Assembly (NCBI GenBank): GCA_947462335.1
Contig: OX381708.1
Coordinates: 38,257,377-38,321,376 of the forward strand
Source: Harmothoe impar
Taxonomy: Eukaryota; Annelida; Polychaeta; Phyllodocida; Polynoidae
DNA length: 64,000 nucleotides
Direction of reading: 5' to 3'
Below are positions 24,191 through 51,641 of this stretch, in pieces. Within the stretch, counting starts at the first letter, position 1; each line of letters begins with the position of its first letter. Position numbers and translations under genes: made by a program. The notes beneath the pieces are model-generated. The model was not told the DNA's origin. It ran no database searches and was given only the letters and a program-made list of their open reading frames with translations.

Positions 24191-25455
24191 ACAGGTGATG
24201 CAACTTGCCACATATATATCTGTTTTATGATACCCTCTTGGTCAAATCGTAATAACCTATACAAAGGCTATGATACAATAATATGATAAGCAGCTATATA
24301 ACCATTACATTTTGCACGGTAGACACAAAAGCTGATTGTCTGTAGTATTATGAATTTATAAACACTAATACTCGCACACACAACTTATATTATTAGATAA
24401 TATTGGACTTGTCTAAGCAGAACATTCATAGTAATAGTGCTGGTTTGTGGTAATAAATTATACTATACCTTTCAAGAGTTCTCTTTACCCAGTTCCAGAT
24501 GAGCATGTACTGGGTATGTATGATTAGTTCCCCGACATGATCAACAGAGGGTTAACAGAAACGCCTATGTAACAGATAAACAAGCTCAGTATAGTCTTAT
24601 TCACATACAATATCAGAGGCCTAAGACTTTATATATTCTGTAATGCCAGGCAGTCTGGTAACCTTGTCATAGCAGGTCATGTCAGGGGAAGCGCTGAATA
24701 CTAATTGAGTCACAAACAGGGTCTTTTGCTTTCGCGTTGTAAAAACAACCATAAATAATGTTTTAGACATCCTGAGGGGGATGTGAAAAAACACATCTGA
24801 TTGTCCGGTTGAAAGAGTGGGTCATTGCCCTCGATGGTCATTGGTTTGATTTGATCCGGCCAAGCAGAGCTAAAGAACAATTCAAGAGCTTTGAACGCTT
24901 TTAATCTGAGGCATTTCAATATTTCATAAAACATGAAATTGAAACAAAAGGTTTGTTTGTTTGTTTGGGGAGGATTTAGATCACAAGAGGTAGAGAGGGG
25001 TCTCACTAAATAGTGTCAACAAAATGAAATAGCCATCTGTATTCAGATACACCCTCCGATGATAAGATAAGGTGTAGGTATACCACCGCAGGTGTGAGTA
25101 TATATGTGGGCGCATTTGCTGACCAGTGACCACTAATGCATATATGTATACTGTATGTGGGGCTGTGTCTATATACACACATCAAGGTATACATGTAAAC
25201 ATGAACCGGCTCATGGAGGGCTAATGGCTACCATCCCAGGTAAAAAAATACCATGGTCGCTACCATGGTTTACAATTCAAGACCATAGTATACCATGGTT
25301 TACCAGAATGTACTATAGTATACTATTGTAAACCAGTGTATGTGTAACTATAATGTATTACTGTACACCATGGTAAACTACCCAGTGGGCACAGCACCAC
25401 CTACTAAACGTTTAGTAGCCATCTTCCTGCAACGGCTGCCCCGTTTACTAGCTGG

Positions 25456-25960
25456 CTAATTTGGTGGCTAATGCAACACCTTGCAGCACTTACTAGTTGG
25501 GTTTTTGCAGCCCTGCAAAATAAGCCCTTAGTAGTAGCTGCTTATGCAGCACCTTCTAACTGGCTAATTTGGTGGCTAATGCAACACCTTGCAGCGCTTA
25601 CTAGTTGGGTTTTTGCAGCCCTGCAAAATAAGCCCTTAGTAGTAGCTACTTATTCAGTGGTTATTAGTCACTGCAAGTGCAGCTACTATTAAGAACTGCG
25701 AATGCAGCACTAACTAGCTCACTAATTTGGTGGCTAATGCAACACCTTGCAGCACTTACAAGTTGGGTTTTTGCAGCCCTGCAAAATAATCTCTTAGTAG
25801 TAGCTGCTTATGCAGTGGATATAAGTTACTACAAATGCAGCACATACTAGCTGACTAATTTGGTGCCTAATGCAACACCTTGCAGCTCTTACTAGTTAGG
25901 TTTCTGCAGCCCTGCAAAATAAACCTTTGGTAGAAGCTGCATATGCAGTGGCTATTAGTC
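25456..25960. repeat. Degenerate tandem repeat, four units of 107-162 bp spacing
   Basis: CTAATTTGGTGGCTAATGCA followed by CACCTTGCAGC, then GGTTTTTGCAGCCCTGCAAA, recurs near 25456, 25563, 25725 and 25855. The 73-codon frame across it is repeat sequence. Confidence 0.8.
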
Positions 25961-26419
25961 ACTGCAGATAAGCTACTATCATGAGCTTCAAATACATCGC
26001 TTAGTAGATGACTACTGGGTGATTAATGCAACACTAGTAGTCAACCTGGGCAAAGGTGTGATTTAATACTGTAGTATATGACCTTTAAGTAATATACTAT
26101 TATACACAGAAATGGTGTCTCAATCAAATTTGGTTGTAATCTATGTTATAAATCATGCCTAAGCTTATTTAAATTTTTAACAATTGATGTAAGTTCTATG
26201 TTTAAATATTTAGCACATTTTGGTACACACATGACTAGTATATGTCATTAATATAATGATATCAAAAAGTTCAAAGAGTATAAAAGTTCAAAAAAGGAAT
26301 ACTGCTGCCACCTACTGGCAACTAATTTATGCCTCAGCAACACCTAATAAGCCTTTATTATGCAGCAGCTAGTAAGCCCTGCAATAGCTGCCCTTAATAG
26401 TCAGTGCTTCTGCAGCCCT

Positions 26420-27692: not shown

Positions 27693-29227
27693 TGCAGCGT
27701 CTAATAAGAGCTGCTGTGCACCATTTACTAGCCACTGCAAGAGCTATAGTTAGGCAACAGTTAATAAGCCTTTCTTATGCAGCAACTACTAAGCCCTGCA
27801 TTTGCAGCCCTTAATATCCAGTGCTTCAGCAGCCCTGCATCTGCAGCTACTAATAATAGTTGCTTTACATCGGCTACTATGTACTGCAAATTCAGCCCTT
27901 TTTTAGCTGTGCCAGGCCACAACTAGTAGTCCCTTAAATGCAGATACTAGCTAGCCTTGCATTAGCATCCCTTAATAGTCAGTGCTTCTGTAACCCTGAA
28001 TTTGCAACTACTAATAGGGGCTGCTATACACCATTTACTAGACACTGCAAATGCAGCCCTTATAAAGCTCTGTCATGGAACATCTAGTAATCACTTAAAA
28101 TGCAGATACTAGTAAGCCCTGCATTAGCATCCCTTAATAATCAGTGCATCTGCAGCCCTGCATTTGCAGCTATTAATAAGAGCTGTTATGTACCTGCTAC
28201 TAAGCACTGCAAATGCCGCCCTTATTAAACTGTGTCAAAAGAACAGCTAGTAAGCTATTAATATGTACCACCTAGTAAGCTCCCCATTAGCTGCGTTTAA
28301 TAGCCAGTGCTTCTGCAGCCCTGAAGTTGCAGCTACTTATAAACGCTGCTCTGCTGCAACTAGTAGCAGTTGCATTTGCAGCACTGCAATGCACCAGATA
28401 GTAATAACTTAATAAGCACTACTCAGAATTTTGCCGATCTAGCCTAAAAAGGTTGATGGTTGCATGAGTGACTAGTAAACGTTGCAACGCAACTAGTCAC
28501 TCAAGCAACGACTAGTAGCTGCTGCAGCCGGATGGTGTGCCCACTGGGTATAGTTGCATTTATTACTATTGTAAACAATAGTTAGATGGTTAAAACAGCA
28601 TCGCTGAATACCATAGTATACGACAAACTATTCTGCAAGGATGGAATTTGTAATTTACCATGATGGTTGGATAATTGTTAACCATGGTTTATTATGATAT
28701 ATCATGGTAATACATTTTATCATGGTATATAATGATTGTCATCACTATGATTTACCATGGTATTATCACTATCATGATAAACCATGGTTTATATATCATA
28801 GTATATCATGGTTAACTCATGTTTACTAGGGTGGTTACACTTAATATATGCAACTATAATATACTAGAGTATTCTGTTTACTATGGTATACCACAATGTA
28901 TTTGGATGATAGAAAACTATAGTTTTGATGCTGTAGTTTATCATAGTTTAGTTGGTCATACTAGAGTTATATTGTGTTTCTTTACTTATACTATGGAGTT
29001 TGTCATGGTATCTACTATGGTTCATATTATAAGTACATAATAATAGTTACCATTTTAAACTATCATAGAACATAGTTTATTGTAGTATTTTATCATAGTA
29101 AACTATGGTTAATCTACCCTGGTTATTTGGCCAAACCATAGTATTATGACAATAGTTTACCATCGTATTTACTATGGTACACTACAATAGTTACCATTGT
29201 AAACTATCATAGAATAGACTATAGTTT

Positions 29228-29640
29228 GGTAGTGTGGGCAGCCTGAGATGTACATGTACCTGGGGATGCAGGCAGTGAGTCATACACCAAGCACCCATAC
29301 CAACAGAGGTGTGTGCGGCCTGAGAGGTACCTGAGGGTGTAGGTGGTGAGTTATAAGTGTCATACACCGAGCACTCACACCTATAGAGGTGTGTGCGGCC
29401 TTTGGAGGTACCTGGGGGTGTAGGTGACGAGTTATAAGTGTCATACACCGAGCACTCACACCTATAGAGGTGTGTGCGGCCTTTGGAGGTACCTGGGGGT
29501 GTAGGTGACGAGTTATAAGTGTCATACACCGAGCACTCACACCTATAGAGGTGTGTGCAGCCTGGGAGGTACCTGGGGGTGTAGGTGACGAGTTATAAGT
29601 GTCATACACCGAGCACTCACACCTACAGAAAAACTTGCTA
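29228..29640. repeat. 81-bp minisatellite
   Basis: GTCATACACCGAGCACTCAC recurs at 29359, 29440, 29521 and 29601, about 81 bp apart, with a degenerate copy at the left and another fragment near 29739-29820. 81 is a multiple of three, so frames stay open and give a repeated 27-residue pattern on the minus strand. I regard this as a by-product. Confidence 0.9.
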
Positions 29641-30025: not shown

Positions 30026-30560
30026 TTGCCTCCAGTACCCGGCCCTATACCCTCCAGTACCCGGCCCTATACCCTCCAGTACCCGGCCCTATACCCTCCA
30101 GTACCCGGCCCTATACCCCCCAGTACCCGGCCCTATACCCTCCAGTACCCGGCCCTATACCCTCCAGTACCCGGCCCTATACCCTCCAGTACCCGGCCCT
30201 ATACCCTCCAGTACCCGGCCCTATACCCTCCAGTACCCGGCCCTATACCCCCCACTACCCGGCCCTATACCCTCCAGTACCTGGCTCTATACCCCCAGTA
30301 CCCGGCCCTATACCCTCCAGTACCTGGCCCTATACCATCCAGTACCTGGCTCTATACCCTCCAGTACCTGGCCCAGATACCCTCCAGCAGTCCAGTACCC
30401 GGCCCCAGCCTCCAGTACCCACCCCTAGCCTCCAGTATCCGGCCTCTGCCTCCAGTACCCGGTCCCAGCCTTTATTACACGGCCCCAGCCTTTATTACCC
30501 ACCCCTAGCCCCCAGTAACTGGCTTCTGCCTCCAGTACCCGGCCCCTGCCTCCAGTACCT
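30026..30560. repeat. 22-bp minisatellite
   Basis: About 16 nearly identical copies of CCCTCCAGTACCCGGCCCTA plus TA, followed by degenerate copies to about 30560 and scattered remnants to 30960. Since 22 is not a multiple of three, the frame advances every copy and gives long Pro/Tyr-rich open frames in more than one phase. These are not genes. Confidence 0.92.
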
Positions 30561-36286: not shown

Positions 36287-36292
36287 CATATA
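36287..36292. other. Left 6-bp target duplication of the Polinton
   Basis: CATATA directly outside the left TIR; the same CATATA is at 46820-46825 outside the right TIR. Six bases is the duplication length known for Polintons. Confidence 0.95.
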
Positions 36293-36684
36293 AGTAGTAT
36301 AGTATGTATCGGAACGGGACTATAGTTAAGTACTGTTTATTACTCAATCGACATGCAGCCAATCAGAGGCCTCCATTTGGTCACGTGACCCGTTGCCATG
36401 GTAACGTGACCTACTTAGGGCTCTCAGCCAATCAGAAGCCAGCATTCTGGGTGACCTACTGACCTACTTAGAAGCTCTCAGCCAATCAGAGGCCGGCATT
36501 CTGGTAACCATGGTAACGTGACCTAATTACGTCACGTGACCTACTTAGGCTCAGCCAATCAGAAGCCGGCATTCTGGTAACTAGGGTAACGTGACCTACT
36601 TAGGGTTTGTTTGTAAACAACACCACGTGGCTTTCTTGTTTGTAAACAACACCACGTGACACGTGACTGTTTGTAAACAAACAA
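36293..36684 (+). repeat. Left terminal inverted repeat (392 bp)
   Basis: Starts AGTAGTATAGTATGTATCGG. It contains four CCAATCAGA boxes (near 36359, 36428, 36482, 36555), several CACGTG/TCACGTGAC palindromes, and three GTTTGTAAACAA palindromes at the inner end. A degenerate sub-repeat of about 55-75 bp (GTGACCTACTTAGG ... CCAATCAGA ... GCATTCTGG) makes up the middle. Polinton TIRs are the presumed ends for integrase binding and protein-primed replication; promoter function is inferred. Confidence 0.96.
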
Positions 36685-36752
36685 ACAAAAAAAAGTTATG
36701 TAACTTATATATAGAAATAAAAACACAACAAGATAATTTCTTTTCTTTTCAT

Positions 36753-36765
36753 TTTATTCTTTATT
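36753..36765 (-). terminator. Two poly(A) signals at the end of the gene train
   Basis: Read on the minus strand, two AATAAA hexamers lie 33-45 bp beyond the stop of the last minus-strand ORF, just inside the left TIR. They are the likely 3' end for protease and 99-aa ORF transcripts. Confidence 0.6.
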
Positions 36766-36797
36766 TTTTCATTTTCAATCAGAAAAAACACACAAGT

Positions 36798-37097
36798 TTA
36801 TGCTTTTTTAGCTCGCTTCTTCGATTTGCAGCAACTCAACAGGCCGCAAAGTCTCACGCCGCCGTCACTCGCACCACCACACCCCGGACGACTTTTCTCC
36901 AATAGACATTGCACGACTTTGGATAAATCCAACACCATTTCGGCAAGGCAGAGAATCTTTGCTTCCATGAAACGGCCGCCATCGCAACAACCCGTCACAA
37001 CAGCATCATCGATAGCTTCTGACTCACGACCCGGTCGCTCAGCTTTGGGATTTTGCTCATGCGCATGACGCACTTCTTGGGGTTTCTTGTTCGACAT
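36798..37097 (-). CDS. Hypothetical 99-aa protein overlapping the protease end
   Basis: ATG-started ORF of 99 codons whose first 103 bases overlap the 3' end of the protease gene in another frame; it ends close to two poly(A) signals. The N-terminal third is charged, the middle (MEAKILCLAEMVLDLSKVV region) could form a helix, and the C-terminus has several Cys followed by a basic tail (KSKKRAKKA). I do not recognise it. Position and ATG make a gene plausible, but an 80-codon frame on the opposite strand and the short length leave doubt. If real, it closes the minus-strand gene train. Confidence 0.4.
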   Translation of the reverse strand: MSNKKPQEVRHAHEQNPKAERPGRESEAIDDAVVTGCCDGGRFMEAKILCLAEMVLDLSKVVQCLLEKSRPGCGGASDGGVRLCGLLSCCKSKKRAKKA

Positions 37098-37447
37098 GCT
37101 TCAATTAGGAAATGAACGCAATGAGGTCCACAGGTGTCAGCAGAAGTGTCTTGTAGTTGAATGCGGTTTCTTTGCCACTTGAACGGAGCAGAGCGTTCCA
37201 CGAAAGACAAGAACTCCGCACTCAGCGGCGGTAAGCCGAAGGAATCAAAGTAGTACACTTCACCCGTGCTCGACACGTAAAACGCCACCCAATGCTGACC
37301 TGGTAAATGTTGCGGATCTGTGTTGCTCACGAAACAAGTGTCTTTGATAGGGTGCTTCGGAATAGTGTCACAAGAGAAAACGCCCAGGAAACGATGTTTT
37401 GTGTGAACGTTTTCCTTCAACACTCTGCTTATTTCAAGCGTGTTCAT
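36995..37447 (-). CDS. Adenovirus-type cysteine protease (PRO)
   Basis: A 150-aa protein of the adenain (C5) family, which in adenoviruses matures capsid and core proteins and is the PRO gene of Polintons. Visible active-site order is His52 (in GQHWVAF), Asp68 (YYFDSFG), Gln99 (oxyanion; seven residues before the nucleophile, as in adenain) and Cys106 (TCGPHC). The open frame extends upstream into the capsid gene, but ATG 37447, 29 bases after the capsid stop, gives a start that excludes capsid-overlapping residues and leaves a normal N-terminus. Expected substrates are the capsid proteins and the pVI/pX-like protein encoded next door. Length is slightly short of adenovirus protease (about 200 aa) but normal for Polintons. 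Intact. Confidence 0.9.
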   Translation of the reverse strand: MNTLEISRVLKENVHTKHRFLGVFSCDTIPKHPIKDTCFVSNTDPQHLPGQHWVAFYVSSTGEVYYFDSFGLPPLSAEFLSFVERSAPFKWQRNRIQLQDTSADTCGPHCVHFLIEACRTRNPKKCVMRMSKIPKLSDRVVSQKLSMMLL

Positions 37448-37476
37448 ACGATACGCCAAGTACCGCCGTCTTGTCT

Positions 37477-38781
37477 TCAGTTCATGTGGTAGTCGGTGAC
37501 GGGGTGTCGATCTCGGGTCAGCTCGACGACGTTGTCGTACACCAAGTAGAGTAGCACCGTTGTTGTCGCTTGTAGCGCCGAGCGGAAACTGACTTCCACC
37601 CTCAGCTGACCCGCTCTTATAAGGTTCACGCGACACCCGTCGTGCGATCTGTCTGGGGTTAAGTCGAGGGGGAACACCGTGTAACCGTTCAGGAATTGTT
37701 CGTATGAAATACCGCAGGAGCGCGCGCCCTCGTACATCCCCGTTTCCGTGTGTAGCGCCAAGTACTCTCTCACGGCCGCTTTGGTCTTAAAGTCGGGCAC
37801 GTAGGCGTCGTTCGGCACTTTCTGATCGTTCACTATCACTTGAAGCGAGCTGATGTCGTAATGCTTCATCTCGAACGGCTTCTTGGTGTAGCTACCGTTG
37901 AAGGCGTCGTGGTCAAGGAAGCAAATCATCATCGACTTGGGAAGCTGGCCTGTGTTGGAGTGCGTGTAGCTGTGATCTCTGTTACCTTGAGGGATGGCGT
38001 AGGTCGTCACCTCCACTCTGTTCACCGGGTAGTCGAAGGGCCCGTGTTCTATCACCGCTCTCTCGTGCGTTTCCGCTACAGCGTCCGCCACCAGCACGCG
38101 TCGCACGTAGAGCTTTGCTTTGTAGATCTTCAAGCTGTAGCCTCCGTCAGCGGCGCACATCAGATAGAAAGAGGGCGCCGCTTGTTTCAGAGTGAGATTG
38201 ATTTCTGTCTCTCCAACGATGAGCTTCGGTTGATGAGCCAGGTCAAAGTGCAGTCGCGCCATCAGCGAAAAGCGCTTGTTGGAGATTAGCTTCTTGCGCG
38301 CTTTGTACCCCGCATTCGCGTCAGTCAACGTGTCAAACTGACCGGGCGTATCTTCATGCCACCCCTGGGCGCTCATGACGCCGTCCTTCACGTCTTTGTT
38401 GTAGTTGAGTAACCCTTCCAAGTAAGCTCGGTAAGGGTAGGTCTCGGTGTTGCCAGACACTTTGAAACCGCCGATGGAGACTTGGACGTCTTTGAAGAGC
38501 GAGTGAGCCAAGTTGTTCACCGGAGCTACCGCGTCGGTGGCCTCGATCGCCGCTCCGTCCTTTAGCACTTGACATTCCAGATGAAGGTAATTCTCGTTCA
38601 GGTCTGTGTACTCTTGCGACTTGTTGATGGTGAAATTTATGTTACCTCCATCCTCTAAAGAGTTTTTTGTTTCTATCCCCAGGAAAGACGACTTTAAGAT
38701 AGTAGTCTGAGTCGGCGCTACGGTGTGCAGGTCGAGCTCAGAGAGCGCGCACTCGTTACTGCTCTCGTGTACGTAAGCCAT
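37477..38781 (-). CDS. Major capsid protein, double jelly-roll type
   Basis: 434 aa. It matches the Polinton/adintovirus major capsid (hexon-like) family by its conserved N-terminal half: an NNLAHSLFKDVQVSIGG block at 89-105 followed by YPYRAYLEGLLNY at 115-127. Family members form trimeric double jelly-roll capsomers of icosahedral particles. The gene starts at ATG 38781, about 55 bp after a TATAAATA box on the same strand. It is followed by the protease, a pairing common in these viruses. No frameshift or stop. Function is assigned from sequence resemblance, not shown experimentally. Confidence 0.85.
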   Translation of the reverse strand: MAYVHESSNECALSELDLHTVAPTQTTILKSSFLGIETKNSLEDGGNINFTINKSQEYTDLNENYLHLECQVLKDGAAIEATDAVAPVNNLAHSLFKDVQVSIGGFKVSGNTETYPYRAYLEGLLNYNKDVKDGVMSAQGWHEDTPGQFDTLTDANAGYKARKKLISNKRFSLMARLHFDLAHQPKLIVGETEINLTLKQAAPSFYLMCAADGGYSLKIYKAKLYVRRVLVADAVAETHERAVIEHGPFDYPVNRVEVTTYAIPQGNRDHSYTHSNTGQLPKSMMICFLDHDAFNGSYTKKPFEMKHYDISSLQVIVNDQKVPNDAYVPDFKTKAAVREYLALHTETGMYEGARSCGISYEQFLNGYTVFPLDLTPDRSHDGCRVNLIRAGQLRVEVSFRSALQATTTVLLYLVYDNVVELTRDRHPVTDYHMN

Positions 38782-38833
38782 TGTGTTCTCTCTTCACGCG
38801 GCCGACAGACTGACGCCGGCCCCCTCCAGTCTT

Positions 38834-38843
38834 TTTATTTATA
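38834..38843 (-). promoter_or_regulatory. TATA box for the capsid gene, also a poly(A) hexamer
   Basis: The minus-strand 10-mer TATAAATAAA lies 53 bp before the capsid ATG and 18 bp after the stop of the upstream pVI/pX-like gene. The same ten bases hold TATAAATA (promoter) and AATAAA (polyadenylation). Both roles are inferred from position. Confidence 0.55.
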
Positions 38844-38860
38844 CCTGAACGCCTAGGCGC

Positions 38861-39292
38861 TTACCGGTCGAATACATCCCCTCTACGTCTCTTGCAAGAG
38901 CCACCGCCCGTCTGAGGGGAATGCCCACGACGACGTTTCGACCCTTTCTTAGACGCGACAGGCGTCTTTCCTCCCGAGAACGCCGTACTCGCCAGTCTCT
39001 TCAGAGCGCCTGCGCCTCGGTCTTTCACGCTGCTCTTTAAAGTCCGACCCGCCAGCACATCTTTAGCTACGCCCACACCGGCGCGGAGCAGCGTTTTTCC
39101 CACCGACTTCAATAGCGGGGTAGCCGAGCGCATCAGACCTAACAGAGCGCCGCCCAAACCGTGCCCGCTCTGGAAAGAGCGCCCGCTGTACACGGTCACG
39201 CCGTTGCCCAGCTGCGCGTTGTAGTAATCGCTGTACCCTCTGCCGAAGTCGGTGCGCCTGGGTGGAAAGTACGGAACGCGTTGACGCATCAT
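38861..39292 (-). CDS. pVI/pX-like basic virion protein
   Basis: 143 aa (two ATGs in tandem at the start). Layout: a polar Arg/Tyr-rich N-terminus; a Gly-rich amphipathic/hydrophobic stretch at about 45-81 (GLGGALLGLMRS ... VAKDVLAG); then a basic tail with KKGSKRRRG (115-123) and CKRRRG (133-138). This arrangement is shared by a small protein found in most Polintons and adintoviruses. It has been compared with adenovirus pVI (membrane lysis) and pX (DNA condensation). Located between the penton-like and major capsid genes, as expected for a virion component. Cleavage by the neighbouring protease is likely, but I do not mark sites because no perfect adenain consensus is certain. Confidence 0.7.
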   Translation of the reverse strand: MMRQRVPYFPPRRTDFGRGYSDYYNAQLGNGVTVYSGRSFQSGHGLGGALLGLMRSATPLLKSVGKTLLRAGVGVAKDVLAGRTLKSSVKDRGAGALKRLASTAFSGGKTPVASKKGSKRRRGHSPQTGGGSCKRRRGDVFDR

Positions 39293-39303
39293 TTTTCTCT
39301 CTT

Positions 39304-40422
39304 TCAGCGCTCAATAGGTCTCAGATGAAGTGTCACGGTCACCTCGCCTCTACCGAATGGGATGGAATGACCGGATCGGTCTCTTAAATAGATGCCGACC
39401 TCGGTAAACCTCTTGGATTTCAAGGGGAAATAATCCAAATGGGGAAAACTGATAGCTTGCACGCCACCTCGACGCTTTCCGCCTCTGTCCACCGCCACGC
39501 AGCGCAACAGCGGCACTTGCATGTCGCCCACACGTCTCTCCTGGATCATGTCGGTGTATATGTACACAGAGTGCACGTCCCCGTAAACATCCATCGAGTA
39601 GGCGCCGGTAGTCGGCGACGCGAAACACGTCTTCTCTCCGAAGCCTAGAACGCATGCGAGATGCTGACTCAGCAGGACAGCACAGTGTCTCGGCGGTTTG
39701 ATGGTGACGCGTTTCGTCTTGGCGTCGTACGATAAGATCCGCATCGGTTTGAGCAAGAAGCTGTCGCCCTCTAGTCTGTCATCTCGCAACGTCTCACTCA
39801 AGCGCTCGATTAGGGTGTGGTTGCTTCCGGTGAAAATAGGAGGTATCTCGAATATGTTTGGCATGAAACTGCGCACTCCCATGTCCTTCTCCATCTTTTC
39901 GATCATCTGTCTTGCTTGATGGCTGATCGTCTTCTTCTTCACCGCCGGGGACAAGAACTGCTTGTATACGGCATTCGTCTGTCTCAAGTCGACCTCTCTC
40001 TTGAACCTTTTTGTTTCCGGTTTCAATTGCTGCTCTTCCGACGTGTCTGATATCTCTTCCACCGTTACATAGCTCGCTTCCTTCCAGTTCAGCGGGAATT
40101 TTGAGCTGAACGTTAGCTTGCTCAGACCGTTCGCGTTTTTCATTCTCTTCCAGTCTACCTGTGGTTTTTTTCCTTCGGAGAAATTAGTTTCTTTTAAAAC
40201 CTGGATCGCCTCCTCTAGCGAACCTTTGGTGCGCAGAGGAACAACGATGATCAAGTCGTCGTCGTGCACGTTAGTCCATTCTGTAGGGAGGATGATCTCA
40301 GTCAGAGCCGCTTCGTACGCTTCGGGCAGAAGGAGCGGCGAGTCGAAGTGAGTTCGGAAAGACGTCAAGCTGTTGTCAGGATAATACTCCATAGAGCTGT
40401 TGCTAGGTAGAGTGATGTTCAT
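39304..40422 (-). CDS. Penton-like minor capsid protein candidate
   Basis: 372 aa. The N-terminus carries the motif seen in a widespread Polinton structural protein: ITLPSNSSMEYYPDNSLTSF at about 3-22, then a PEAYEAALTEIILP segment (33-46). Proteins of this type are taken as minor capsid (single jelly-roll, penton-position) proteins. Residues 110-160 form a charged region (RFKREVDLRQ); the C-terminal half is beta-rich in appearance. It lies four bases after the integrase stop and 11 bases before the pVI/pX-like ORF. Minor capsid is the best reading; the N-terminal motif is secure, the structural role is inferred. Confidence 0.7.
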   Translation of the reverse strand: MNITLPSNSSMEYYPDNSLTSFRTHFDSPLLLPEAYEAALTEIILPTEWTNVHDDDLIIVVPLRTKGSLEEAIQVLKETNFSEGKKPQVDWKRMKNANGLSKLTFSSKFPLNWKEASYVTVEEISDTSEEQQLKPETKRFKREVDLRQTNAVYKQFLSPAVKKKTISHQARQMIEKMEKDMGVRSFMPNIFEIPPIFTGSNHTLIERLSETLRDDRLEGDSFLLKPMRILSYDAKTKRVTIKPPRHCAVLLSQHLACVLGFGEKTCFASPTTGAYSMDVYGDVHSVYIYTDMIQERRVGDMQVPLLRCVAVDRGGKRRGGVQAISFPHLDYFPLKSKRFTEVGIYLRDRSGHSIPFGRGEVTVTLHLRPIER

Positions 40423-40426
40423 TTTG

Positions 40427-41563
40427 TTACGTTATTTTTTTGACGGGGATCCACTCGTTGAACTTGTCGTCGTAACCTAACCAACGTACGAAAGCTAACT
40501 CTTTACCGTCGACGGTCTTGCGGCGCAACACCTCGTCTATCAGGTAGTTCTTGTCGTAACGACTCTTGTACACCTTCTGAACCTCTTCCGGGTAGAAGAC
40601 GCCTTTTATCTCCTCGCCCTTGTCGTCTTTCAGCTCGAACCCTCTGCTTCCCAACGTGTTAGCAACGTCCACCACTTCCTCGCGCCAGTTTCCCTCGTAC
40701 CCTTTGTCGAAGGCGCCTTTGGTTCTCAACATCCTCACTCTGTCACCCGGAGCGATGACGTCGACGGCAGACGTCTTTGTTTTTTTCTTCTTTTTCCATA
40801 TTTCGTCGATTTGTTTGTTAGTTGGGAGATCTTGTCGGTAGAAAACTGTTTCGCTGTTTTCCGAGCTGACTTGAGCCGGCGCCATTTTCAACGTCTTGTG
40901 GTGAGTGCGATTGTAAGAAGACACTACATGGTGCAGCACGTCTACGTAGCGATACGTGCGCTTGTGTGTGAAATAACGCCACAGCTTCTCCTTCAGACTG
41001 CGGTTCAAGCGCTCCACTAGACTAGCTTTGATGTCGTCGTTCTCGCCAGTGAAGAACTCTATGCCCTCGCTCTTCAAGTGATCTTGAAAGATCTTGTTCA
41101 AAAACTCTTTCCCCTTGTCTGTCTGAACAGTGCGCGGTCGTCTCTCGCCAGGGCCTGTCATCTCTCGGAAGGCCTCGGTGACATCAGCGCCGCTCTTGGA
41201 TTTAATGGGAACGGCCCACGCGTACCTAGAGAAAACGTCGATCGCCGTCACCACGTACCGGAAGCGGTCGTTGTGAGACGCCAAAGCTTGCATGTCCATC
41301 AGATCTATCTGCCACTGCTGATCGATTGCGCCGGTTATAGTCTTGTTCCTTGCGAATTTTCTCCGAATGGGTTTATGTTTAGTGTAGGCGTCCAGCGACA
41401 CTAAAGCATCTCGGATGACGGCCGGGTTCAGGTGGCGAAAATGCTGTTTCTGGAGTTTAGTCACGCTAGTGAAACTGGAGGGCGCTTTGACGTCGGTATA
41501 TCTAGCTACTACGCGCTTCTTTTCTTTTTCCTTCTTGGTCAGTCTCTTCACTGGTTTGCCCAT
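40427..41563 (-). CDS. Retroviral-type integrase with C-terminal chromodomain (INT)
   Basis: 378 aa. The catalytic core has Asp87 (WQIDLMD), Asp149 (VQTDKGKEF) and Glu184 (SLVERLNRSLKEKLW), with 34 residues between the last two, the DDE triad of the rve family. An SH3-like segment follows (GDRVRML, about 273-300). The C-terminal 40 residues (about 338-376) read as a chromodomain with aromatic positions Tyr340, Trp361 and Trp371. Polinton integrases join the TIR ends to target DNA and make 6-bp duplications, which fits the CATATA flanks. The chromodomain suggests targeting to methylated histone. The first 16 bases overlap the end of the upstream ORF. Complete and without stops. Confidence 0.95.
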   Translation of the reverse strand: MGKPVKRLTKKEKEKKRVVARYTDVKAPSSFTSVTKLQKQHFRHLNPAVIRDALVSLDAYTKHKPIRRKFARNKTITGAIDQQWQIDLMDMQALASHNDRFRYVVTAIDVFSRYAWAVPIKSKSGADVTEAFREMTGPGERRPRTVQTDKGKEFLNKIFQDHLKSEGIEFFTGENDDIKASLVERLNRSLKEKLWRYFTHKRTYRYVDVLHHVVSSYNRTHHKTLKMAPAQVSSENSETVFYRQDLPTNKQIDEIWKKKKKTKTSAVDVIAPGDRVRMLRTKGAFDKGYEGNWREEVVDVANTLGSRGFELKDDKGEEIKGVFYPEEVQKVYKSRYDKNYLIDEVLRRKTVDGKELAFVRWLGYDDKFNEWIPVKKIT

Positions 41564-42750
41564 CGCGGGTCTCTTGAGGGCGTGAAAGACGAGCTCGCCG
41601 CTAGGCGGTTGCGCGCTTTCCTTTTCTTACTACGCGGCGCGCTCCTATAGGAAGTCGGAGTTTGGAAAAGTTCACGGTCGTCCTCCTCGTCGTCAGAGGA
41701 TTGATCGTCCACCACCTGCAGAGAAGAGTCTGCTGCTGCTACTGCTGCTGCTGCTGCTGCTTCTCCTTCTTCCGATTCGAAGCTCGGTCGTTTCCGACCT
41801 CTGTCAGCAAGCCGTGTGTCCAAACTTTGGCCAGGTCCGCTCGCTTTATACAGATGGTTTCCGATCAAGGCGTCTGTGGTGGGAACCGCTTCGCGCAGCG
41901 CTTTCGTGAACGGCGAGTAGCCCGCCGGTCTGGGCGCCGTCTTCCTGAACCTGGCGGCGTCGTTCAGTAAGTCCACTATGTTGATGCGATGCTCAGGTGG
42001 TATTCTCCGACCCGACATCTCGCGCACCGCCCCGTCCTCGTTCCACTTGATCACTCCGGATTTCTCCAATTGTTTGTACAGCTCCACGGTCCGGCGGCGA
42101 CTCCTCTTGGGAACTTGGTTCGCCAACCGCTCGAGTAGGGACGCGCTGGCCTCTTCAGCAGACTGACGGAGGTGAGCCAGGGGCGAAGAAGAGTAGGACG
42201 AAGAGATGTTGCTGTTGTGGGGATTCGCGAGAAAAAATTGCAATCTATTCAACAACCTTCGGTATTTCAACATTTTCTCGCGCGATTCCAAAGTGGGGTC
42301 GTTCAACACTAAATCCAAGTCCCTGTAGATAAACTGTAGCACCTGGTGCAAGGCCGCGTCGGGATGAAGGGACTGCTCTGCCTGCTTGTGGTAATAGGCC
42401 ATGTCGGCGGGTAGGCGGGCGGCGGTGGCAGGAGCGGAACTCTCGTTCTTTTCAGTGCGCTCATCAGGAAGAGGAGGAAGGTTTGGAGCAGTAGAAGTAC
42501 TAGCAGCAGCGACTGCAGTAGTAGCAGCGCTAGTAGTAGCAGCAGCAGCGGGCACATGATGAAGTAGACCTGCTCGTGATGATTTGTAGAGCGTCTCAGG
42601 ATCCACGAGCGCTAAACGTTTGTAGTGTTGTTGCTGCTCTGAGTCCGTCATGGGGACGCCGGTGGCAATGACGCTGGTGGTGGCGGTAGCGGTGGTGGTG
42701 GTGGTGGTGGTGGTGCTGTCGGCGAGTAGGTGTCGAATGACGTGTCTCAT
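41548..42750 (-). CDS. Conserved Polinton protein, unknown function (400 aa)
   Basis: Residues 1-115 are low complexity (Thr run at 13-20, Ala/Thr-rich at 68-88). Residues 132-175 look helical (DLDLVLNDPTLESREKMLKY). Residues 222-302 match a block I associate with Polinton/adintovirus proteins of unknown role (a Trp-containing turn, INIVDLLNDAARFRK, then FTKALREAVP and ALIGN). The C-terminus has an acidic run (about 347-360) and a basic KKRKARNR patch. Its ATG overlaps the preceding stop by ATGA, and its end overlaps the integrase start. A structural or scaffold role is plausible from position only. Confidence 0.65.
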   Translation of the reverse strand: MRHVIRHLLADSTTTTTTTTATATTSVIATGVPMTDSEQQQHYKRLALVDPETLYKSSRAGLLHHVPAAAATTSAATTAVAAASTSTAPNLPPLPDERTEKNESSAPATAARLPADMAYYHKQAEQSLHPDAALHQVLQFIYRDLDLVLNDPTLESREKMLKYRRLLNRLQFFLANPHNSNISSSYSSSPLAHLRQSAEEASASLLERLANQVPKRSRRRTVELYKQLEKSGVIKWNEDGAVREMSGRRIPPEHRINIVDLLNDAARFRKTAPRPAGYSPFTKALREAVPTTDALIGNHLYKASGPGQSLDTRLADRGRKRPSFESEEGEAAAAAAVAAADSSLQVVDDQSSDDEEDDRELFQTPTSYRSAPRSKKRKARNRLAASSSFTPSRDPRWANQ

Positions 42751-43079
42751 ATACGGAGAATGCTCTTTATAAGCGGTAAGGCCATCCCTATGAGAGCCGG
42801 AATGAGGAAACCTCCCTCTTGTACCAAGACGCGTCTCTTTTTTTTGATGGGCGTAGATTTTTTGCCGACCTCCCTCAACACGTCAGCCGATTCTCGAAGC
42901 TTGTCCAGTTGTTTGTCGCTGAGCGGGATGTTCCCTACCAGTAAATTGTGACAGATCTCACTCAACGCTGCGATCAGCTCGTCGCTTCCAGAGTCTATTA
43001 GATGCGAGCAGTCCTTTGGCGAGCACTTAGCTAAGTGCTTGAGAGTACCAAAGTGTCTTTCGAGTAGATGAGAAGACAT
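42747..43079 (-). CDS. Small conserved Polinton protein (110 aa)
   Basis: An early helical region, then SEICHNLLVGNIPLSDKQL (40-58), a basic hinge (KKKRR, 79-83) and a C-terminal hydrophobic segment beginning QEGGFLIPALIGMALPLI (87-104). This architecture recurs in many Polintons directly beside the packaging ATPase. The C-terminal segment may insert into or disrupt membrane. No enzymatic motif. It lies nine bases after the ATPase stop and overlaps the next ORF by four bases (ATGA). An A-rich leader precedes the ATG. Confidence 0.7.
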   Translation of the reverse strand: MSSHLLERHFGTLKHLAKCSPKDCSHLIDSGSDELIAALSEICHNLLVGNIPLSDKQLDKLRESADVLREVGKKSTPIKKKRRVLVQEGGFLIPALIGMALPLIKSILRI

Positions 43080-43088
43080 TTTTTTTTG

Positions 43089-43808
43089 CTACTGCTTTCT
43101 GTTGTTCTTTTTTTTGTCTAGCGGTACGAACACTAGCTGAGAGTGTATGGCCGTCAAAGAGGAGCGTATTCTCAGATCGTCAGGTGTTGACTGCTTGAAG
43201 TCCAGGAGGAGGTATGAGTGAGGTCGCTTGAGTTCATGGGTAAATATACTAGAGAGGGCCGCCGCGTTGGACGGAAACACCTGGCGAGACAGACTAGCTA
43301 TTTGCCCCATGTCGCGCGGGTTCTTGAAAACGATCATGTAGTGAGCGTTCAGACTCATAGTTCGAAAGTCGGGTGATTTCTGGAAGAGGTTCTGAGTGAT
43401 GTATATGACGCTCACGTTCCAGTGATGCGAGTATTTAGTAAAGATGTCGGCTACCACTTGCTGATTGGAACTGCTCATCAGATCGTCCAATATCAGTAGA
43501 GTGTGGGGTCGTACAGCGTCTTCTGCTACTTCCACGTCTCCCGCTATAGACTCTTTGCTAGGAAGACCTTCTCTGAATTCCACACCGTACCGATTTGCCA
43601 TTTTTTCAAACAGAGGTTGCCACTCGCCGTAATGGTAAAAAGTCTTTTCCACCGGCGGCGTGACCAAATTGTTCACGTCGCTCAGAAATTGATCCACCAA
43701 GCGCGATTTTCCACAACCCGACGGACCGCTAATGATACAACTAAAGGGTCCTTGTAGTCGAGCGTCGAAATGAATTTCTGTGAAGAGTTTGCTTTTACTA
43801 CTGGACAT
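43089..43808 (-). CDS. FtsK/HerA-type genome-packaging ATPase (ATP)
   Basis: 239 aa. Walker A GPSGCGKS at 28-35, Walker B LLILDD at 104-109, and an ITQN sensor-like motif at 137-140 are all intact. This is the A32-like ATPase of Polintons, virophages and large DNA viruses, which pumps DNA into preformed capsids. Length is normal for the family (about 230-260 aa). It starts at ATG 43808 after an A-tract and is the first of the closely packed minus-strand genes; 357 bp of non-coding DNA with a hairpin and a purine tract separate it from the upstream ORF. Its presence together with capsid genes argues that this element once encoded a particle. Confidence 0.95.
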   Translation of the reverse strand: MSSSKSKLFTEIHFDARLQGPFSCIISGPSGCGKSRLVDQFLSDVNNLVTPPVEKTFYHYGEWQPLFEKMANRYGVEFREGLPSKESIAGDVEVAEDAVRPHTLLILDDLMSSSNQQVVADIFTKYSHHWNVSVIYITQNLFQKSPDFRTMSLNAHYMIVFKNPRDMGQIASLSRQVFPSNAAALSSIFTHELKRPHSYLLLDFKQSTPDDLRIRSSLTAIHSQLVFVPLDKKKNNRKQ

Positions 43809-44009
43809 TTTTTTTTGTTTTTTTTTCAGGACGCGTCAGAGAGCGGTTGTGTGTCTGACTGTCTGCTGTGTTTCTCACTCGAACGGTCGGTGGTGAATGG
43901 TTGTGGAGAAAAGTCCGCCGACCTTTTTATTGATTCCGGTCGGTGTCACAGTAGCGGCGGCAGAAGTGACTTTTTTTTGCGATAAAATTCTATTTTCACT
44001 CAATAGTCA

Positions 44010-44054
44010 TAAATGTTTGTATCAGACTCCAGAGGAGTCTGATACAAATATTTA
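44010..44054. promoter_or_regulatory. Near-perfect 21-bp-arm hairpin upstream of the ATPase gene
   Basis: TAAATGTTTGTATCAGACTC with one more C, then loop AGA, then the inverted arm; one mismatch in 21 pairs. It overlaps an AATAAA-like signal on the minus strand for the upstream ORF. It could be a transcript 3'-end structure, a regulatory palindrome or a replication/resolution site; the sequence does not decide. Confidence 0.6.
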
Positions 44055-44070
44055 TTTTTTTTTAAAAAAA

Positions 44071-44159
44071 GAAGAAGAGGAGGAGGAGGAGGAGGAGGAG
44101 GAGGAGGAGGAGGAGGAGGAGGAGGAGGAGATTAGTTTTTTTTTTTTTTTTTTTTTTTT
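44071..44159. repeat. (GGA)n purine tract followed by T24
   Basis: About 60 bp of GAA/GGA repeat, then ATTAG, then 24 T. Polypurine-polypyrimidine DNA of this kind can form a triplex. It lies between the 216-aa ORF stop and the ATPase start, in non-coding sequence of the Polinton. Confidence 0.92.
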
Positions 44160-44165
44160 GATCAT

Positions 44166-44816
44166 TTAGGCAAAGCTCGTCGCTTTGCCGTTTTTTTTTC
44201 TATTTCTGTGTTGTGACACGATCGTCTCGAAAAAGCAATAAGGCGTGTGAGCGCGGCGGTGACAAATACATATTGGAGCGTATGGTTTAAAATAGTGCGT
44301 CCCTATCTTCTTCAATTCGGCTGCGTTGCAATATGCGGGATAACAAGTGACGACGTCGAAACGTTTAGAGACCGTGTTCACGTCGGCCACAACGCGCGCC
44401 CACCGAGTGGGAGCTGCAGTCGCTCCCAAGAAACCGATCGGCTTGTCGAATCGTTTCATAGCACTTATTCTCACTTTATAAGAGGAGGCAGGGTGAGGAG
44501 AGTAGCGGCGCTCTTTCTTTTCATGAAACGCCCAACGAGTGGGGGCGCTGAGAGCAGCTGTTATGCAATAGTAGAGTAAATGCTGTTCTGAGAAGACGGC
44601 TCTCGGCCATGTCGCTACGTTTTCCTTTTCCGCTCTTGTATAACGACGATGGCGCTCAGCTTTGCATTTCTCGAGAATTCGGTACGCCTCAAGAGAAGCG
44701 TGAACCTCAACTACGTGACGCTCTCTCCTTTGAGATAAAAAAATAGCCGGGCAGTTGAGGAGAGCGCTTTGTTCGCGCGACCGTCTTTTAGAAACTCGCG
44801 CCCTCTGCAGCGCCAT
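44166..44816 (-). CDS. Orphan 216-aa protein of the Polinton
   Basis: Started at ATG 44816, the first ATG after a minus-strand TATAAAA at 45035-45041; the open frame itself reaches 44858 without another ATG. Very basic, Arg/Lys-rich N-terminal 65 residues. The pentapeptide APTRW occurs twice (91-95 and 135-139), each followed by KRFD (121-126 and 151-154 region), suggesting an internal duplication. A Cys/His cluster occurs near the C-terminus (PICICHRRAHTPYC, 181-194). I recognise no family. It sits where other Polintons place additional or replication genes, but I see no polymerase, helicase or Rep motif. A DNA-binding role would be a guess. Confidence 0.55.
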   Translation of the reverse strand: MALQRARVSKRRSREQSALLNCPAIFLSQRRERHVVEVHASLEAYRILEKCKAERHRRYTRAEKENVATWPRAVFSEQHLLYYCITAALSAPTRWAFHEKKERRYSPHPASSYKVRISAMKRFDKPIGFLGATAAPTRWARVVADVNTVSKRFDVVTCYPAYCNAAELKKIGTHYFKPYAPICICHRRAHTPYCFFETIVSQHRNRKKNGKATSFA

Positions 44817-45034
44817 ATTTCTTTCCTCCGAAACAAAAAAGCCTGAGTGAAAATACAAATTTAAGAAAACAAAAAGCTCAAAGAAAAAAAATAAGCAATA
44901 AGCAGACTCAGCTCGAAATTCCCTGCTGGCGTGATGGCGGTGACTGCAGGCGGTGGCGGCGGTCGGCTGGCCGGCGGTGGCGGTGTCGGCGGCGATGGTA
45001 GAAGGGTGTGTGGAAAGAGAGACGCATCTCAGTG

Positions 45035-45041
45035 TTTTATA
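45035..45041 (-). promoter_or_regulatory. TATA box for the 216-aa ORF
   Basis: TATAAAA on the minus strand. Start of transcription would fall near 45010, leaving a leader of about 195 bases without an upstream ATG before ATG 44816. Confidence 0.5.
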
Positions 45042-45546
45042 GGAGCGGCGAGTCTGACATTTTCAGCTGTCGCATGCTGACCTGCTGCTAGCATAAGAGA
45101 AACAAAAGCCCTAATCACACTTTTCAGCTGGATCCTTCCACCCCGCCAGACATGGATCCCAGATGGGAAGGCGGTTTAAAATTAAATCCGTGTACCGACT
45201 GTCATACAATAGGGTAATTAGTTGAACGCGTGTTACCTGTATAAAGGATTAACGGGTCATGGGCTCAGCGTGTGTATAGAAAAACAACTACAGGTAGCGT
45301 GAACAAAGCGACCCCCTCCCTTTCTGTCACTCTGTCTGTGACTAGAGGGTGCGCGTGTGGTAAGCGGCTTATATCTAAAGAAAAAAACAAATCACCCTCG
45401 CCTGTCATCAGCAGACAGCCGGCTGGCGGCTGGAAAATGCGATTAGAGGGATGATGAGCCACGTAGTAAGCGACTTAAGGCTGATCTAAAGACCTGCCGT
45501 GAAGGGGCAGCTGGCCGGTGGCTTGAAAAAAGGCGGGGCGTAAGGG

Positions 45547-45554
45547 TATATAAG
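45547..45554 (+). promoter_or_regulatory. TATA box for the Ala-rich ORF
   Basis: TATATAAG followed about 25-30 bp later by TTCAGCATC, an initiator-like context (TCAG). Transcription from here would exclude the upstream non-ATG part of the open frame and make ATG 45676 the first ATG. Confidence 0.6.
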
Positions 45555-45594
45555 GGGAGTGAAACCACATTCAGCATCGTCATCATCGTTCACG

Positions 45595-45637
<43 letters not shown>
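45595..45637 (+). repeat. (CTA)n microsatellite in the leader of the Ala-rich ORF
   Basis: About 14 CTA triplets. It translates as a Leu run only if a GTG at 45559 is used, which is unlikely in a eukaryote. Confidence 0.9.
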
Positions 45638-45645
<8 letters not shown>

Positions 45646-45675
45646 GCACAGCGCCTCAATTTGCAGATCCTCGTG

Positions 45676-46311
45676 ATGGAAAGTTGCTACCGTGACATGA
45701 AGCGGAATGACGAAGCGGCGCGCGAATGTGAAGCTGATGCTGTAGCCTCTGCTACTGCTGCTGCTAGTGCTGCTCAGCGTGCTACTGCTGCATTTACTGC
45801 GGCTGTTAGTGACGCGGGTCGTGATGACGTTGTTGTTGTTGCCGCTGCGGCTGTGACTGCTGCTGTTGCTGCCGCCGATGCAGCTACTCATGCCACCGAT
45901 GCCGACGCTGCTGCTGCTGATGCTGTTGCGGCTGCCGATGACGCCGCTGATAACGCTACTAGTGCCCGCTCTGCCGCCCTTGCTACTGTCGCTGCTGCTG
46001 TTGTTGCTAATGCTCACGCTACTGCTGCTGCCGCTGCTGCTACTGCTGCTACCGCTGCTGCCGAGGCTGCTGCCGCTGCTGCCGATGCTGCTGCCGATGC
46101 TGCCGATGCTGCTGCCGATGCTGATGTTAGCAGTCGCGTCGACAAAGAATCGTCATTTGTCACTCTTAAAGCCGCTCCAGTGGAACGCGCGACGGGTAGT
46201 AGGGCTACCAACGCGACGGCCGGATGGTGCAAATGGTGTCGTCGCTTCTGCTCGTGCGCTTGCTTTTCTTCCGGTCCTACCTGCTGCTGCTACGGTATGA
46301 TAGTGTTATAG
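45676..46311 (+). CDS. Ala-rich protein with Cys-rich C-terminus (211 aa), uncertain
   Basis: The only plus-strand ORF of the Polinton with promoter support (TATATAAG 122 bp upstream of the ATG). From ATG 45676 it begins MESCYRDMKRNDEAARE, then about 135 residues dominated by Ala with Asp/Thr from expanded GCN codons. It ends in a non-repetitive tail with eight Cys in the last 30 residues (GWCKWCRRFCSCACF, then CCC). The triplet expansion keeps other frames open too (Leu-rich), so coding status is unsure. The unique head and tail in one frame and the promoter favour a gene. Unknown function; no similar Polinton protein comes to mind. Confidence 0.45.
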   Translation: MESCYRDMKRNDEAARECEADAVASATAAASAAQRATAAFTAAVSDAGRDDVVVVAAAAVTAAVAAADAATHATDADAAAADAVAAADDAADNATSARSAALATVAAAVVANAHATAAAAAATAATAAAEAAAAAADAAADAADAAADADVSSRVDKESSFVTLKAAPVERATGSRATNATAGWCKWCRRFCSCACFSSGPTCCCYGMIVL

Positions 46312-46427
46312 TGTTTGAATGAGAACGCGCGTAGTTACACATAGACGCTGTTACAGATGTGCTTTTTTATTCGAAAATATAATTTTAACATAAGATGGAA
46401 CTTGTTGTGTTTTTTTCTATATATACG

Positions 46428-46819
46428 TTGTTTGTTTACAAACAGGCACGTGTCACGTGGTGTTGTTTACAAACAAGAGAGCCACGTGGTGTTGTTTACA
46501 AACAAACCCTAAGTAGGTCACGTTACCCTAGTTACCAGAATGCCGGCTTCTGATTGGCTGAGCCTAAGTAGGTCACGTGACGTAAGTAGGTCACGTTACC
46601 ATAGTTACCAGAATGCCAGCCTCTCATTGGCTGAGAGCTTCTAAGTAGGTCAGTAGGTCACCCAGAATGCTGGCTTCTGATTGGCTGAGAGCCCTAAGTA
46701 GGTCACGTTACCATGGCAACGGGTCACGTGACCAAATGGAGGCCTCTGATTGGCTGCATGTCGATTGAGTAATAAACAGTACTTAACTATAGTCCCGTTC
46801 CGATACATACTATACTACT
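46428..46819 (-). repeat. Right terminal inverted repeat (392 bp)
   Basis: Inverted copy of 36293-36684 with the same length and about six substitutions by eye (for example CCAATGAGAG for CCAATCAGAG in the third CCAAT box). Equal length implies no net indels since insertion. Confidence 0.96.
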
Positions 46820-46825
46820 CATATA
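46820..46825. other. Right 6-bp target duplication of the Polinton
   Basis: CATATA immediately after the right TIR, identical to 36287-36292. Confidence 0.95.
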
Positions 46826-50883: not shown

Positions 50884-51340
50884 GTGCTGCCTCCTGGTAG
50901 GGGGGGTGGTTAGCGCAAATTTTTTGTGGTCTGCAGCCTAAAATATGGTACTCATCATGGGAAACAAGAAGCTGGCTCTCGTTTTTGATTTTGAAAACTC
51001 CTACCCCCCCGTACGCCCCCTCCGAAGATAAAAAGTCGGAAAATAATTAATTAATTCAATTAAAAAATTCCCACATAGTGTGCATCCCTTAATATTCACA
51101 TCAAATCACTTTGAGGTGAAATGTAAAAATAAAGTAGACTAAAATGAGCTATTTTGAAATTTTGGGAAAATTCAAGATGGCCGCCATTGGCAAAAAACAC
51201 AGTTTTCAATGTAATTCTATCCATATTTGGTCTGCCACACCTGAAATCTCTATAGAATCACTTTGCTATGGTTTATAATGACATTCTGCACCAAAGTCAG
51301 CTATTTTTGAAACTTTTGAAAATTCAAGATGGCCACCATT
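50884..51340 (+). repeat. Left arm of inner inverted repeat
   Basis: Pairs with 54560-55025 inverted; shared words include CCGTACGCCCCCTCC, CCCACATAGTGTGCATCCCT and TCAAATCACTTTGAGGTGAA. Confidence 0.85.
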
Positions 51341-51490
51341 GGCAAAAAACACTGTTTTTTAATGTAATTCTATCCATATTTGGCCTGCCACACCTGAAAT
51401 CTCAATGGAATCACTTGGCTATGGTGTATAATGACATACTGCACTAAAGTCAGCTATTCTGAAGCTTTTGAAAAATCAAGATGGCCGCCA
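51170..51490. repeat. 152-bp tandem repeat, two and a part copies
   Basis: TTCAAGATGGCC(G/A)CCATTGG recurs near 51171 and 51323 and, changed, near 51475, followed by the shared CTATCCATATTTGG(T/C)CTGCC and GAATCACTT(T/G)GCTATGG. Inverted relatives are found near 53790 and 54565-54730. Confidence 0.8.
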
Positions 51491-51641
51491 TTGAGAAAAA
51501 AAACATCATTTTCCAGTGTTAATTATGTCCATACTTGGTCCGTATAATTACATTCTTATATAGTCGACTACACAGGAAACCTATACTGATACTGTTTCTA
51601 AAATATCCAAAATGGCTGTCATCAGACAAAAGCAATGTTAA

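What the first reader, a model, noticed from the sequence alone, without database searches (positions are those of the whole stretch)
36293..46819. Complete, young Polinton that has all particle genes but no DNA polymerase B
Seen: TIRs of equal length with about six differences, an exact CATATA duplication, and an intact integrase, packaging ATPase, protease, major capsid, penton-like protein and pVI/pX-like protein. No part of the element is long enough or similar enough to be pPolB. Known: Polintons are regarded as self-synthesising because they encode a protein-primed polymerase. Inference: this is a natural replication-dependent Polinton, a satellite that packages and integrates itself but borrows a polymerase in trans, or one that replicates by host enzymes. 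Intact genes argue against simple decay.
Basis: partly seen in the sequence, partly recalled or inferred. Interest (0 to 1): 0.88.

Follow-up and report, generated by a model that had tools for sequence, protein, structure and literature searches.

The report
Polymerase-less Polinton with thousands of copies
One genome carries about ten thousand ends of a young virus-like mobile element that keeps its shell and insertion genes but shows no DNA polymerase gene in any copy tested, so it likely borrows a polymerase from related elements in the same genome.

Summary
36293-46819 (10,527 bp) has 392-bp inverted repeats with six differences, a CATATA duplication, protease, double-jelly-roll capsid, integrase and ATPase genes, and no PolB trace. 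It is one of a huge young family: its exact 36-bp end occurs 10,421 times in this 1.51-Gb genome (control 0). Of 40 paired end-to-end intervals among the first 100 ends, 38 measure 8.7-10.5 kb; two longer ones were not read. Nine both-ended copies of this subtype measure 10,513-10,541 bp; 8 of 8 checked have their own perfect 6-bp duplication. The best-scoring integrases (109 of 109) and capsid genes (97 of 97) are open. A second subfamily copy is also PolB-less and open where read. Dozens of open PolB genes lie in other, distant Polinton families; one such locus shares a noncoding block with this element. Replication by a borrowed PolB is the likeliest reading but untested. A shorter class with the same ends (27 of 40 intervals, 8.7-9.9 kb) could not be read. 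New variant of a known kind.

The parts
36287..36292 (.). CATATA target-site duplication, left
   Evidence: Read; 8 of 8 other copies checked have their own perfect 6-bp duplications
36293..36684 (+). left terminal inverted repeat, 392 bp, begins AGTAGT; holds repeated 53-bp modules with CCAATCAG and CACGTG boxes
   Evidence: its last 391 bp (36294-36684) 100% identical in 40 of 40 scored places of 627 candidates
36995..37447 (-). adenovirus-type protease (PRO), about 150 aa
   Evidence: PF00770 E 2.9e-4, slightly under the curated cut-off
37477..38781 (-). major capsid protein, 434 aa, F54H12.2-like
   Evidence: double-jelly-roll fold; protein relatives; 97 of 97 scored genomic copies open, of 2,817 candidates
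38861..39292 (-). small basic protein in the PW / pVI-pX position
   Evidence: ORF; name by gene order only (PMC8097293, section 7)
39304..40422 (-). minor capsid (penton-like) protein, 372 aa
   Evidence: 26-29% identity over 87 aa to proteins of two PolB-bearing Polintons of this genome, E 7e-8 and 5e-7
40427..41563 (-). retrovirus-type integrase with a C-terminal chromodomain-like stretch
   Evidence: PF00665 E 3.6e-13; PF00385 E 0.0015, under its cut-off; 109 of 109 scored copies 100% identical and open, of 6,690 candidates
41548..42882 (-). ORF of 444 codons of unknown function in the PZ position (stop to stop)
   Evidence: five protein relatives at 52-95% identity
42747..43079 (-). small hydrophobic-tailed protein in the PM position, 110 aa
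   Evidence: 38% identity over 55 aa to a stretch of the PolB-bearing C7 locus, E 2e-5
43089..43808 (-). packaging ATPase, 239 aa
   Evidence: PF02456 over its curated cut-off; 33-34% identity to ATPases of PolB-bearing families
45062..45430 (.). noncoding block, two pieces (45062-45144 and 45222-45430), shared in inverted orientation with a PolB-bearing Polinton locus
   Evidence: 74% identity over 222 columns, E 2e-25, and 76% over 89, E 2e-6; a 17-nt core occurs 3,037 times, control 0
45544..46311 (+). alanine-rich ORF opening at a TATATAAGG box; also open in the subfamily B copy
46428..46819 (-). right terminal inverted repeat, ends ACTACT
   Evidence: 46130-46819 is 100% identical in 40 of 40 scored places of 1,487 candidates
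46820..46825 (.). CATATA target-site duplication, right

Best explanation
This is a young Polinton-derived virus-like element that has kept its capsid, packaging, protease and integrase genes, shows no pPolB in any copy tested here, and has multiplied through its genome, likely by having its ends copied by the protein-primed polymerase of other Polintons living in the same genome. Shown: the gene content, the PolB-less length of the measured copies, separate insertions with 6-bp duplications, near-identity of copies, and open PolB genes in distant families. Inferred: its own proteins would make a particle; a foreign pPolB with its attached terminal protein would start synthesis at the AGTAGT//ACTACT ends, the doubled triplet that allows jumping back; its own ATPase would package the copy and its own integrase insert it. 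The shared noncoding block would let element and helper be switched on together, or is the trace of an exchange between them.
For: Copy number and youth: 10,421 exact ends, control 0; 1,375 exact copies of a 54-nt integrase segment, control 0; the 30 fetched loci have 28 different flanking hexamers (CCCATG and TATATA occur twice) and 24 private changes in 30 x 1,495 bp. No PolB: 9 of 9 both-ended copies 10,513-10,541 bp; 21 of 22 integrase-to-right-end distances 6,265-6,401. Open genes: 109 of 109 integrases, 97 of 97 capsid genes, and 97 of 97 further capsid genes nearer to a public relative, P0001, than this copy is; all are the best-scoring candidates. Constraint while PolB-less: one subfamily B copy differs by about 77 coding changes without a stop (3.3 expected, P 0.035); non-synonymous share below neutral (P 0.023; integrase alone P 0.006); its three gaps are 3, 3 and 30 bp. 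Polymerase supply: 129 PF03175 match rows, several per gene, many in open frames of 1,100-1,570 codons. Link: a noncoding block at 74% identity shared with a PolB-bearing locus whose proteins are only 24-38% identical. Doubled AGT ends are the commonest ends of vertebrate Mavericks and are tied there to jumping-back (PMC8097293, sections 7 and 14 part 1).
Against: No PolB-bearing element with the same end was found, and no TIR of a PolB-bearing family was identified. No dependence on a helper was tested. Penton-like, capsid and ATPase genes taken singly do not reject neutrality (P 0.44, 0.23, 0.22). Two of 40 paired intervals (13,245 and 15,926 bp) and the whole 8.7-9.9 kb class (27 of 40) were not read. 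Left and right repeats keep six differences in identical ends across the burst, so homogenisation of the two ends was rare in it.
Confidence: 0.5

Rival explanations
1. The element moves without any dedicated polymerase: its integrase cuts and pastes it like a Ginger-type transposon, and host replication and repair raise the copy number.
For: Integrase is intact in 109 of 109 scored copies; the six differences between the two repeats are preserved across copies, as expected if the element is moved as a double-stranded unit.
Against: Thousands of ends in a near-identical state fit replicative spread better; integrase alone does not explain why capsid and ATPase genes stay open.
Confidence: 0.2
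2. The helper is an outside virus (an adintovirus or another DNA virus) that infects the host now and then, so the element behaves like an animal virophage.
For: It keeps a shell gene set; relatives of the capsid protein (72-94% identity for the six nearest) and of the 444-codon protein (52-95%) occur in public contigs of unknown host.
Against: Open PolB genes are already resident in the genome, so no outside helper is needed; two viral contig scans with the capsid protein found no relative.
Confidence: 0.13
3. A PolB-bearing sister with the same ends exists and was missed, for example among the two longer intervals or the unread 8.7-9.9 kb class, so element and helper are two halves of one family.
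For: These intervals are bounded by the same 36-bp end; the shorter class has the shared noncoding core about 2.5-2.7 kb from one end in 9 of 27 copies, against about 1.5-1.6 kb in 4 of 11 longer copies, and 0 of 27 carry the exact integrase segment (10 of 11 longer ones do), so its gene content differs.
Against: PF03175 gave 695 first-look candidates in the whole genome, fewer than the several thousand copies of the shorter class that searches suggest; none of the listed PolB matches (83 of 695 candidates scored) lies in C1:1-5.26 Mb, where 27 such copies lie.
Confidence: 0.12
4. The element has its own replicase of an unknown kind in the 444-codon ORF or the alanine-rich ORF.
For: Both are unexplained; the alanine-rich ORF stays open in the subfamily B copy.
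Against: No polymerase, helicase or primase domain in either at E up to 10; the alanine-rich ORF is low-complexity.
Confidence: 0.05

Closest known systems
Polintons / Mavericks of vertebrates (PMC8097293; sections 7, 8 and part 1 of 14 read, other passages seen)
   Same: AGT-doubled ends, inverted repeats of about 400 bp, 6-bp duplications, gene order atp-pm-pz and int-mcp-pw-MCP-pro
   Different: pPolB is missing; 10.5 kb against 12.7-24.6 kb for intact elements there; thousands of ends against at most 38 intact and about 287 total copies in a genome surveyed there
Mavericks of Trichomonas vaginalis (PMC7845603, passages seen)
   Same: about 5,000 copies in one genome; its table of analysed genes lists fewer PolB (1,491) than integrase (3,551) entries, so PolB-less copies may exist there too
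   Different: elements up to 30 kb in a family that does carry PolB genes; a protist
Adintoviruses and other midsize linear DNA viruses of animals (PMC11071296, passages seen)
   Same: adenovirus-like virion genes with a retrovirus-like integrase and chromodomain
   Different: adintoviruses are defined with PolB; genomes lacking recognisable PolB and integrase are mentioned there, whereas this one lacks PolB only
Polinton-like viruses and virophages (PMC12747079, PMC11071308, passages seen)
   Same: capsid-bearing elements that often lack pPolB; virophages depend on helpers
   Different: they carry other replicases or helicases, none of which was found here

Membership tests
[quoted passage not shown]
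   window copy plus 8 of 8 other copies checked
Polinton / Maverick | retrovirus-type integrase | tested here: met
   PF00665 E 3.6e-13
Polinton / Maverick | packaging ATPase and adenovirus-type protease | tested here: met
   ATPase over cut-off; protease 21.0 bits against 21.3, just under
Polinton / Maverick | double-jelly-roll major capsid protein | tested here: met
   model pLDDT 84; Sputnik, PBCV-1, mavirus capsids E 1e-16 to 1e-15
[quoted passage not shown]
   so it is called Polinton-derived here, not a self-synthesising Polinton
Adintovirus | PolB with OTU-like domain | tested here: not met
Polinton-like virus | alternative replicase or helicase in place of pPolB | tested here: not met
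   no convincing domain of that kind in the ORFs scanned; the weak helicase hits fall on the packaging ATPase's P-loop
Virophage or satellite virus | dependence on a helper's replication enzymes | not testable with these tools
   would need expression or replication data
Virophage or satellite virus | sharing of cis signals with the helper | tested here: inconclusive
   noncoding block shared with one PolB-bearing locus, function unknown; no other family sharing 13 end bases above chance

The most novel reading that the evidence does not exclude
A genome-resident satellite of Polintons: an element that builds its own shell and inserts itself, lost its polymerase, hijacks the PolB of distant Polintons in the same genome, shares a regulatory block with such a helper, and has outgrown them to thousands of copies, making a complete helper-satellite system inside one nuclear genome.
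Probability: 0.4. Interest if true: 0.9.

Novelty: new variant of a known kind. Interest (0 to 1): 0.77.

Why it matters
Polintons are called self-synthesising because they bring their own polymerase. A lineage with no PolB in any copy tested, which still spread recently and kept its shell and integrase genes open, would show that self-synthesis is dispensable for a Polinton. It gives a natural test of whether Polinton polymerases work in trans, whether Polinton particles really form, and how satellites of DNA viruses arise. The scale, about 10,400 ends or roughly 50 Mb (3.3% of the genome) if all belong to full copies, would also make it a large recent force on its host genome.

Tried and rejected
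Rejected: a single recent deletion, an assembly accident or a decayed copy. Rejected: a recognisable PolB remnant in the element. Rejected: recent descent from one of the seven PolB-bearing loci sampled here; their capsid, integrase and ATPase proteins, where covered, are 22-26%, 31-34% and 33-34% identical.

Led nowhere: two viral contig scans and the phage collection hold no relative; the capsid profile against PDB sequences returned only ribonucleases, taken as chance. No inverted repeat was found between the outer stretches read of a PolB-bearing family on C3, and none beyond low-complexity sequence for the C7 locus. In the C7 locus an ORF start that I recall as PolB-like follows a PC4-like gene; Pfam supports PC4 just under its cut-off and does not confirm PolB.

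Print searches for a PolB-lacking Polinton (open-access library only, listings read, passages of eight papers seen) showed none in animals. The 2006 founding paper and Repbase reports were not read, and one 2024 review and the adintovirus paper were not held, so a prior mention is possible. One survey (PMC4028283, passage) dropped elements under 10 kb as incomplete, and another (PMC8097293, passages) appears to have built its candidates on integrase and pPolB hits, so both could miss such elements.
Full report
What is there. The element spans 36293-46819, 10,527 bp, between CATATA duplications. Its 392-bp inverted repeats begin AGTAGT, differ at six positions and hold repeated CCAAT and CACGTG modules. 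The genes with support lie on the minus strand in the order ATPase, PM-position protein, PZ-position ORF, integrase, penton-like protein, PW-position protein, capsid, protease; one alanine-rich ORF lies on the plus strand next to the right repeat. This is the order given for vertebrate Mavericks without ppolb (PMC8097293, section 7 read). The names PM, PZ and PW are by position only. The capsid protein is related to an F54H12.2-like protein of a tardigrade at 31% and folds as a double jelly roll.

No polymerase. Eight PolB-type frames from six loci of this genome find nothing in the element (best E 1.2), Pfam at E up to 10 finds no polymerase, helicase or primase in the seven ORFs scanned, five of them from the right-hand region, and the genome-wide PF03175 list, with 83 of 695 candidates scored, has nothing in the window.

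It is a family, not a locus. The left repeat without its first base and the right-hand 690 bp are each 100% identical in 40 of 40 scored places, of 627 and 1,487 candidates. A union of four capped searches gives 160 distinct loci of this subtype. Nine show both ends, the window copy included, all 10,513-10,541 bp; 22 show integrase and right end, 21 of them 6,265-6,401 bp apart and one 7,556; 31 show left end and integrase, 4,028-4,138 bp apart. Eight of eight other copies checked have perfect 6-bp duplications, all different. Whole-genome counts are larger: 5,198 plus 5,223 exact 36-bp ends, control 0, and 705 plus 670 exact copies of a 54-nt integrase segment, control 0. Of the first 100 ends listed, 80 form 40 pairs: 11 of about 10.3-10.5 kb, 27 of 8.7-9.9 kb, and two of 13.2 and 15.9 kb; 20 ends are unpaired. 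Ten of the 11 longer copies carry the integrase segment and 4 of 11 the exact noncoding core; of the 27 shorter ones 0 carry the segment and 9 the core. The gene content of the shorter class is unknown.

Youth and selection. In 30 loci, 24 changes are private to one copy in 30 x 1,495 bp, 0.054% per copy; with an assumed 3-5e-9 changes per site and year this is 0.1-0.2 million years, with 1e-9 to 1e-8 it is 0.05-0.5. Integrase is open and identical in 109 of 109 scored loci of 6,690 candidates, capsid open in 97 of 97 of 2,817. These are the best candidates, so decayed copies are not counted. Subfamily B was found around a nested insertion. It is 4-5% different in the right-hand noncoding part, 30 other loci are 99% identical to that copy over 1.1 kb or its pieces, and it has no PolB where read. 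A search with the public relative P0001 gave 97 of 97 further open capsid genes at 95-96% identity, against 94% for the window copy and for the B copy read; 9 of the 11 on C1 have the exact integrase segment at the same spacing. The B copy read differs from A by about 77 coding changes with no stop and gaps of 3, 3 and 30 bp; its ATPase, integrase, penton-like and capsid frames are open where covered. The non-synonymous share is below neutral overall (P 0.023) and in integrase (P 0.006), but not singly in capsid, penton-like or ATPase genes.

Where a polymerase could come from. PF03175 gives 129 match rows, several per gene, many in open frames of 1,100-1,570 codons, in several families; two of these have near-identical copies. 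Their other proteins, in the seven loci sampled, are distant from the element's: capsid 22-26%, integrase 31-34%, ATPase 33-34%. One such locus on C7 shares a noncoding block with the element, 74% over 222 columns and 76% over 89, in inverted orientation, between the ATPase gene and a plus-strand low-complexity ORF that has the same TATATAAGG box. A 17-nt core of it occurs 3,037 times, control 0. Noncoding DNA more alike than the proteins beside it points to exchange or to a shared signal. The other 12 stretches of PolB-bearing loci compared, two of them from the same C7 locus, showed no such block. Against a shared end: no family that shares 13 end bases and then differs was seen above chance.

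Mechanism. Shown: the parts, the spread, the missing gene, the available polymerases. Inferred: that a resident PolB copies the element in trans, that particles form, and that the block acts as a switch. I put this at 0.5, with integrase-only movement at 0.2, an outside viral helper at 0.13, a missed PolB-bearing sister at 0.12 and an unknown replicase at 0.05.

Compared with what is known. Intact vertebrate Mavericks measure 12.7-24.6 kb, with at most 38 intact and about 287 total copies per genome surveyed (PMC8097293, sections 7 and 8). About 5,000 Mavericks are reported in Trichomonas (PMC7845603, passages), with fewer PolB than integrase genes listed. Polinton-like viruses that lack pPolB carry other replication genes (PMC12747079, PMC11071308, passages). 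The element fails the polymerase criterion of Polintons and adintoviruses, so it is filed as a Polinton-derived, PolB-less variant.

Noticed in passing
L086, L073, L087, L088 (G000:C7, about 690600-709980): A PolB-bearing Polinton locus with a PC4-like plus-strand gene (PF02229 E 2.7e-4, under its cut-off) followed by a zinc-finger ORF start that resembles a PolB N-terminus from recall; possibly two polymerase genes in one locus.
   Followed up: partly
L061, L062, L074, L075 (G000:C3, about 73504500-73528000): A PolB-bearing locus with integrase, ATPase and, by eye, protease- and capsid-like ORFs, whose inverted repeats were not found in the stretches read; nine of the 30 PolB loci fetched are 99-100% identical to each other.
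   Followed up: partly
L021 (G000:C3, about 5698190-5708713): A young copy of the element inserted inside a subfamily B copy, so nesting occurs.
   Followed up: yes
G000:C8, integrase at 35983244: One copy whose integrase-to-right-end distance is about 1.2 kb longer than in the other 21.
   Followed up: no
window 30029-30387: Sixteen copies of a 22-bp minisatellite that reads through as a proline-rich frame; other long tandem arrays at 25448-25963, 27777-28350, 29279-29629 and 51147-51538.
   Followed up: no
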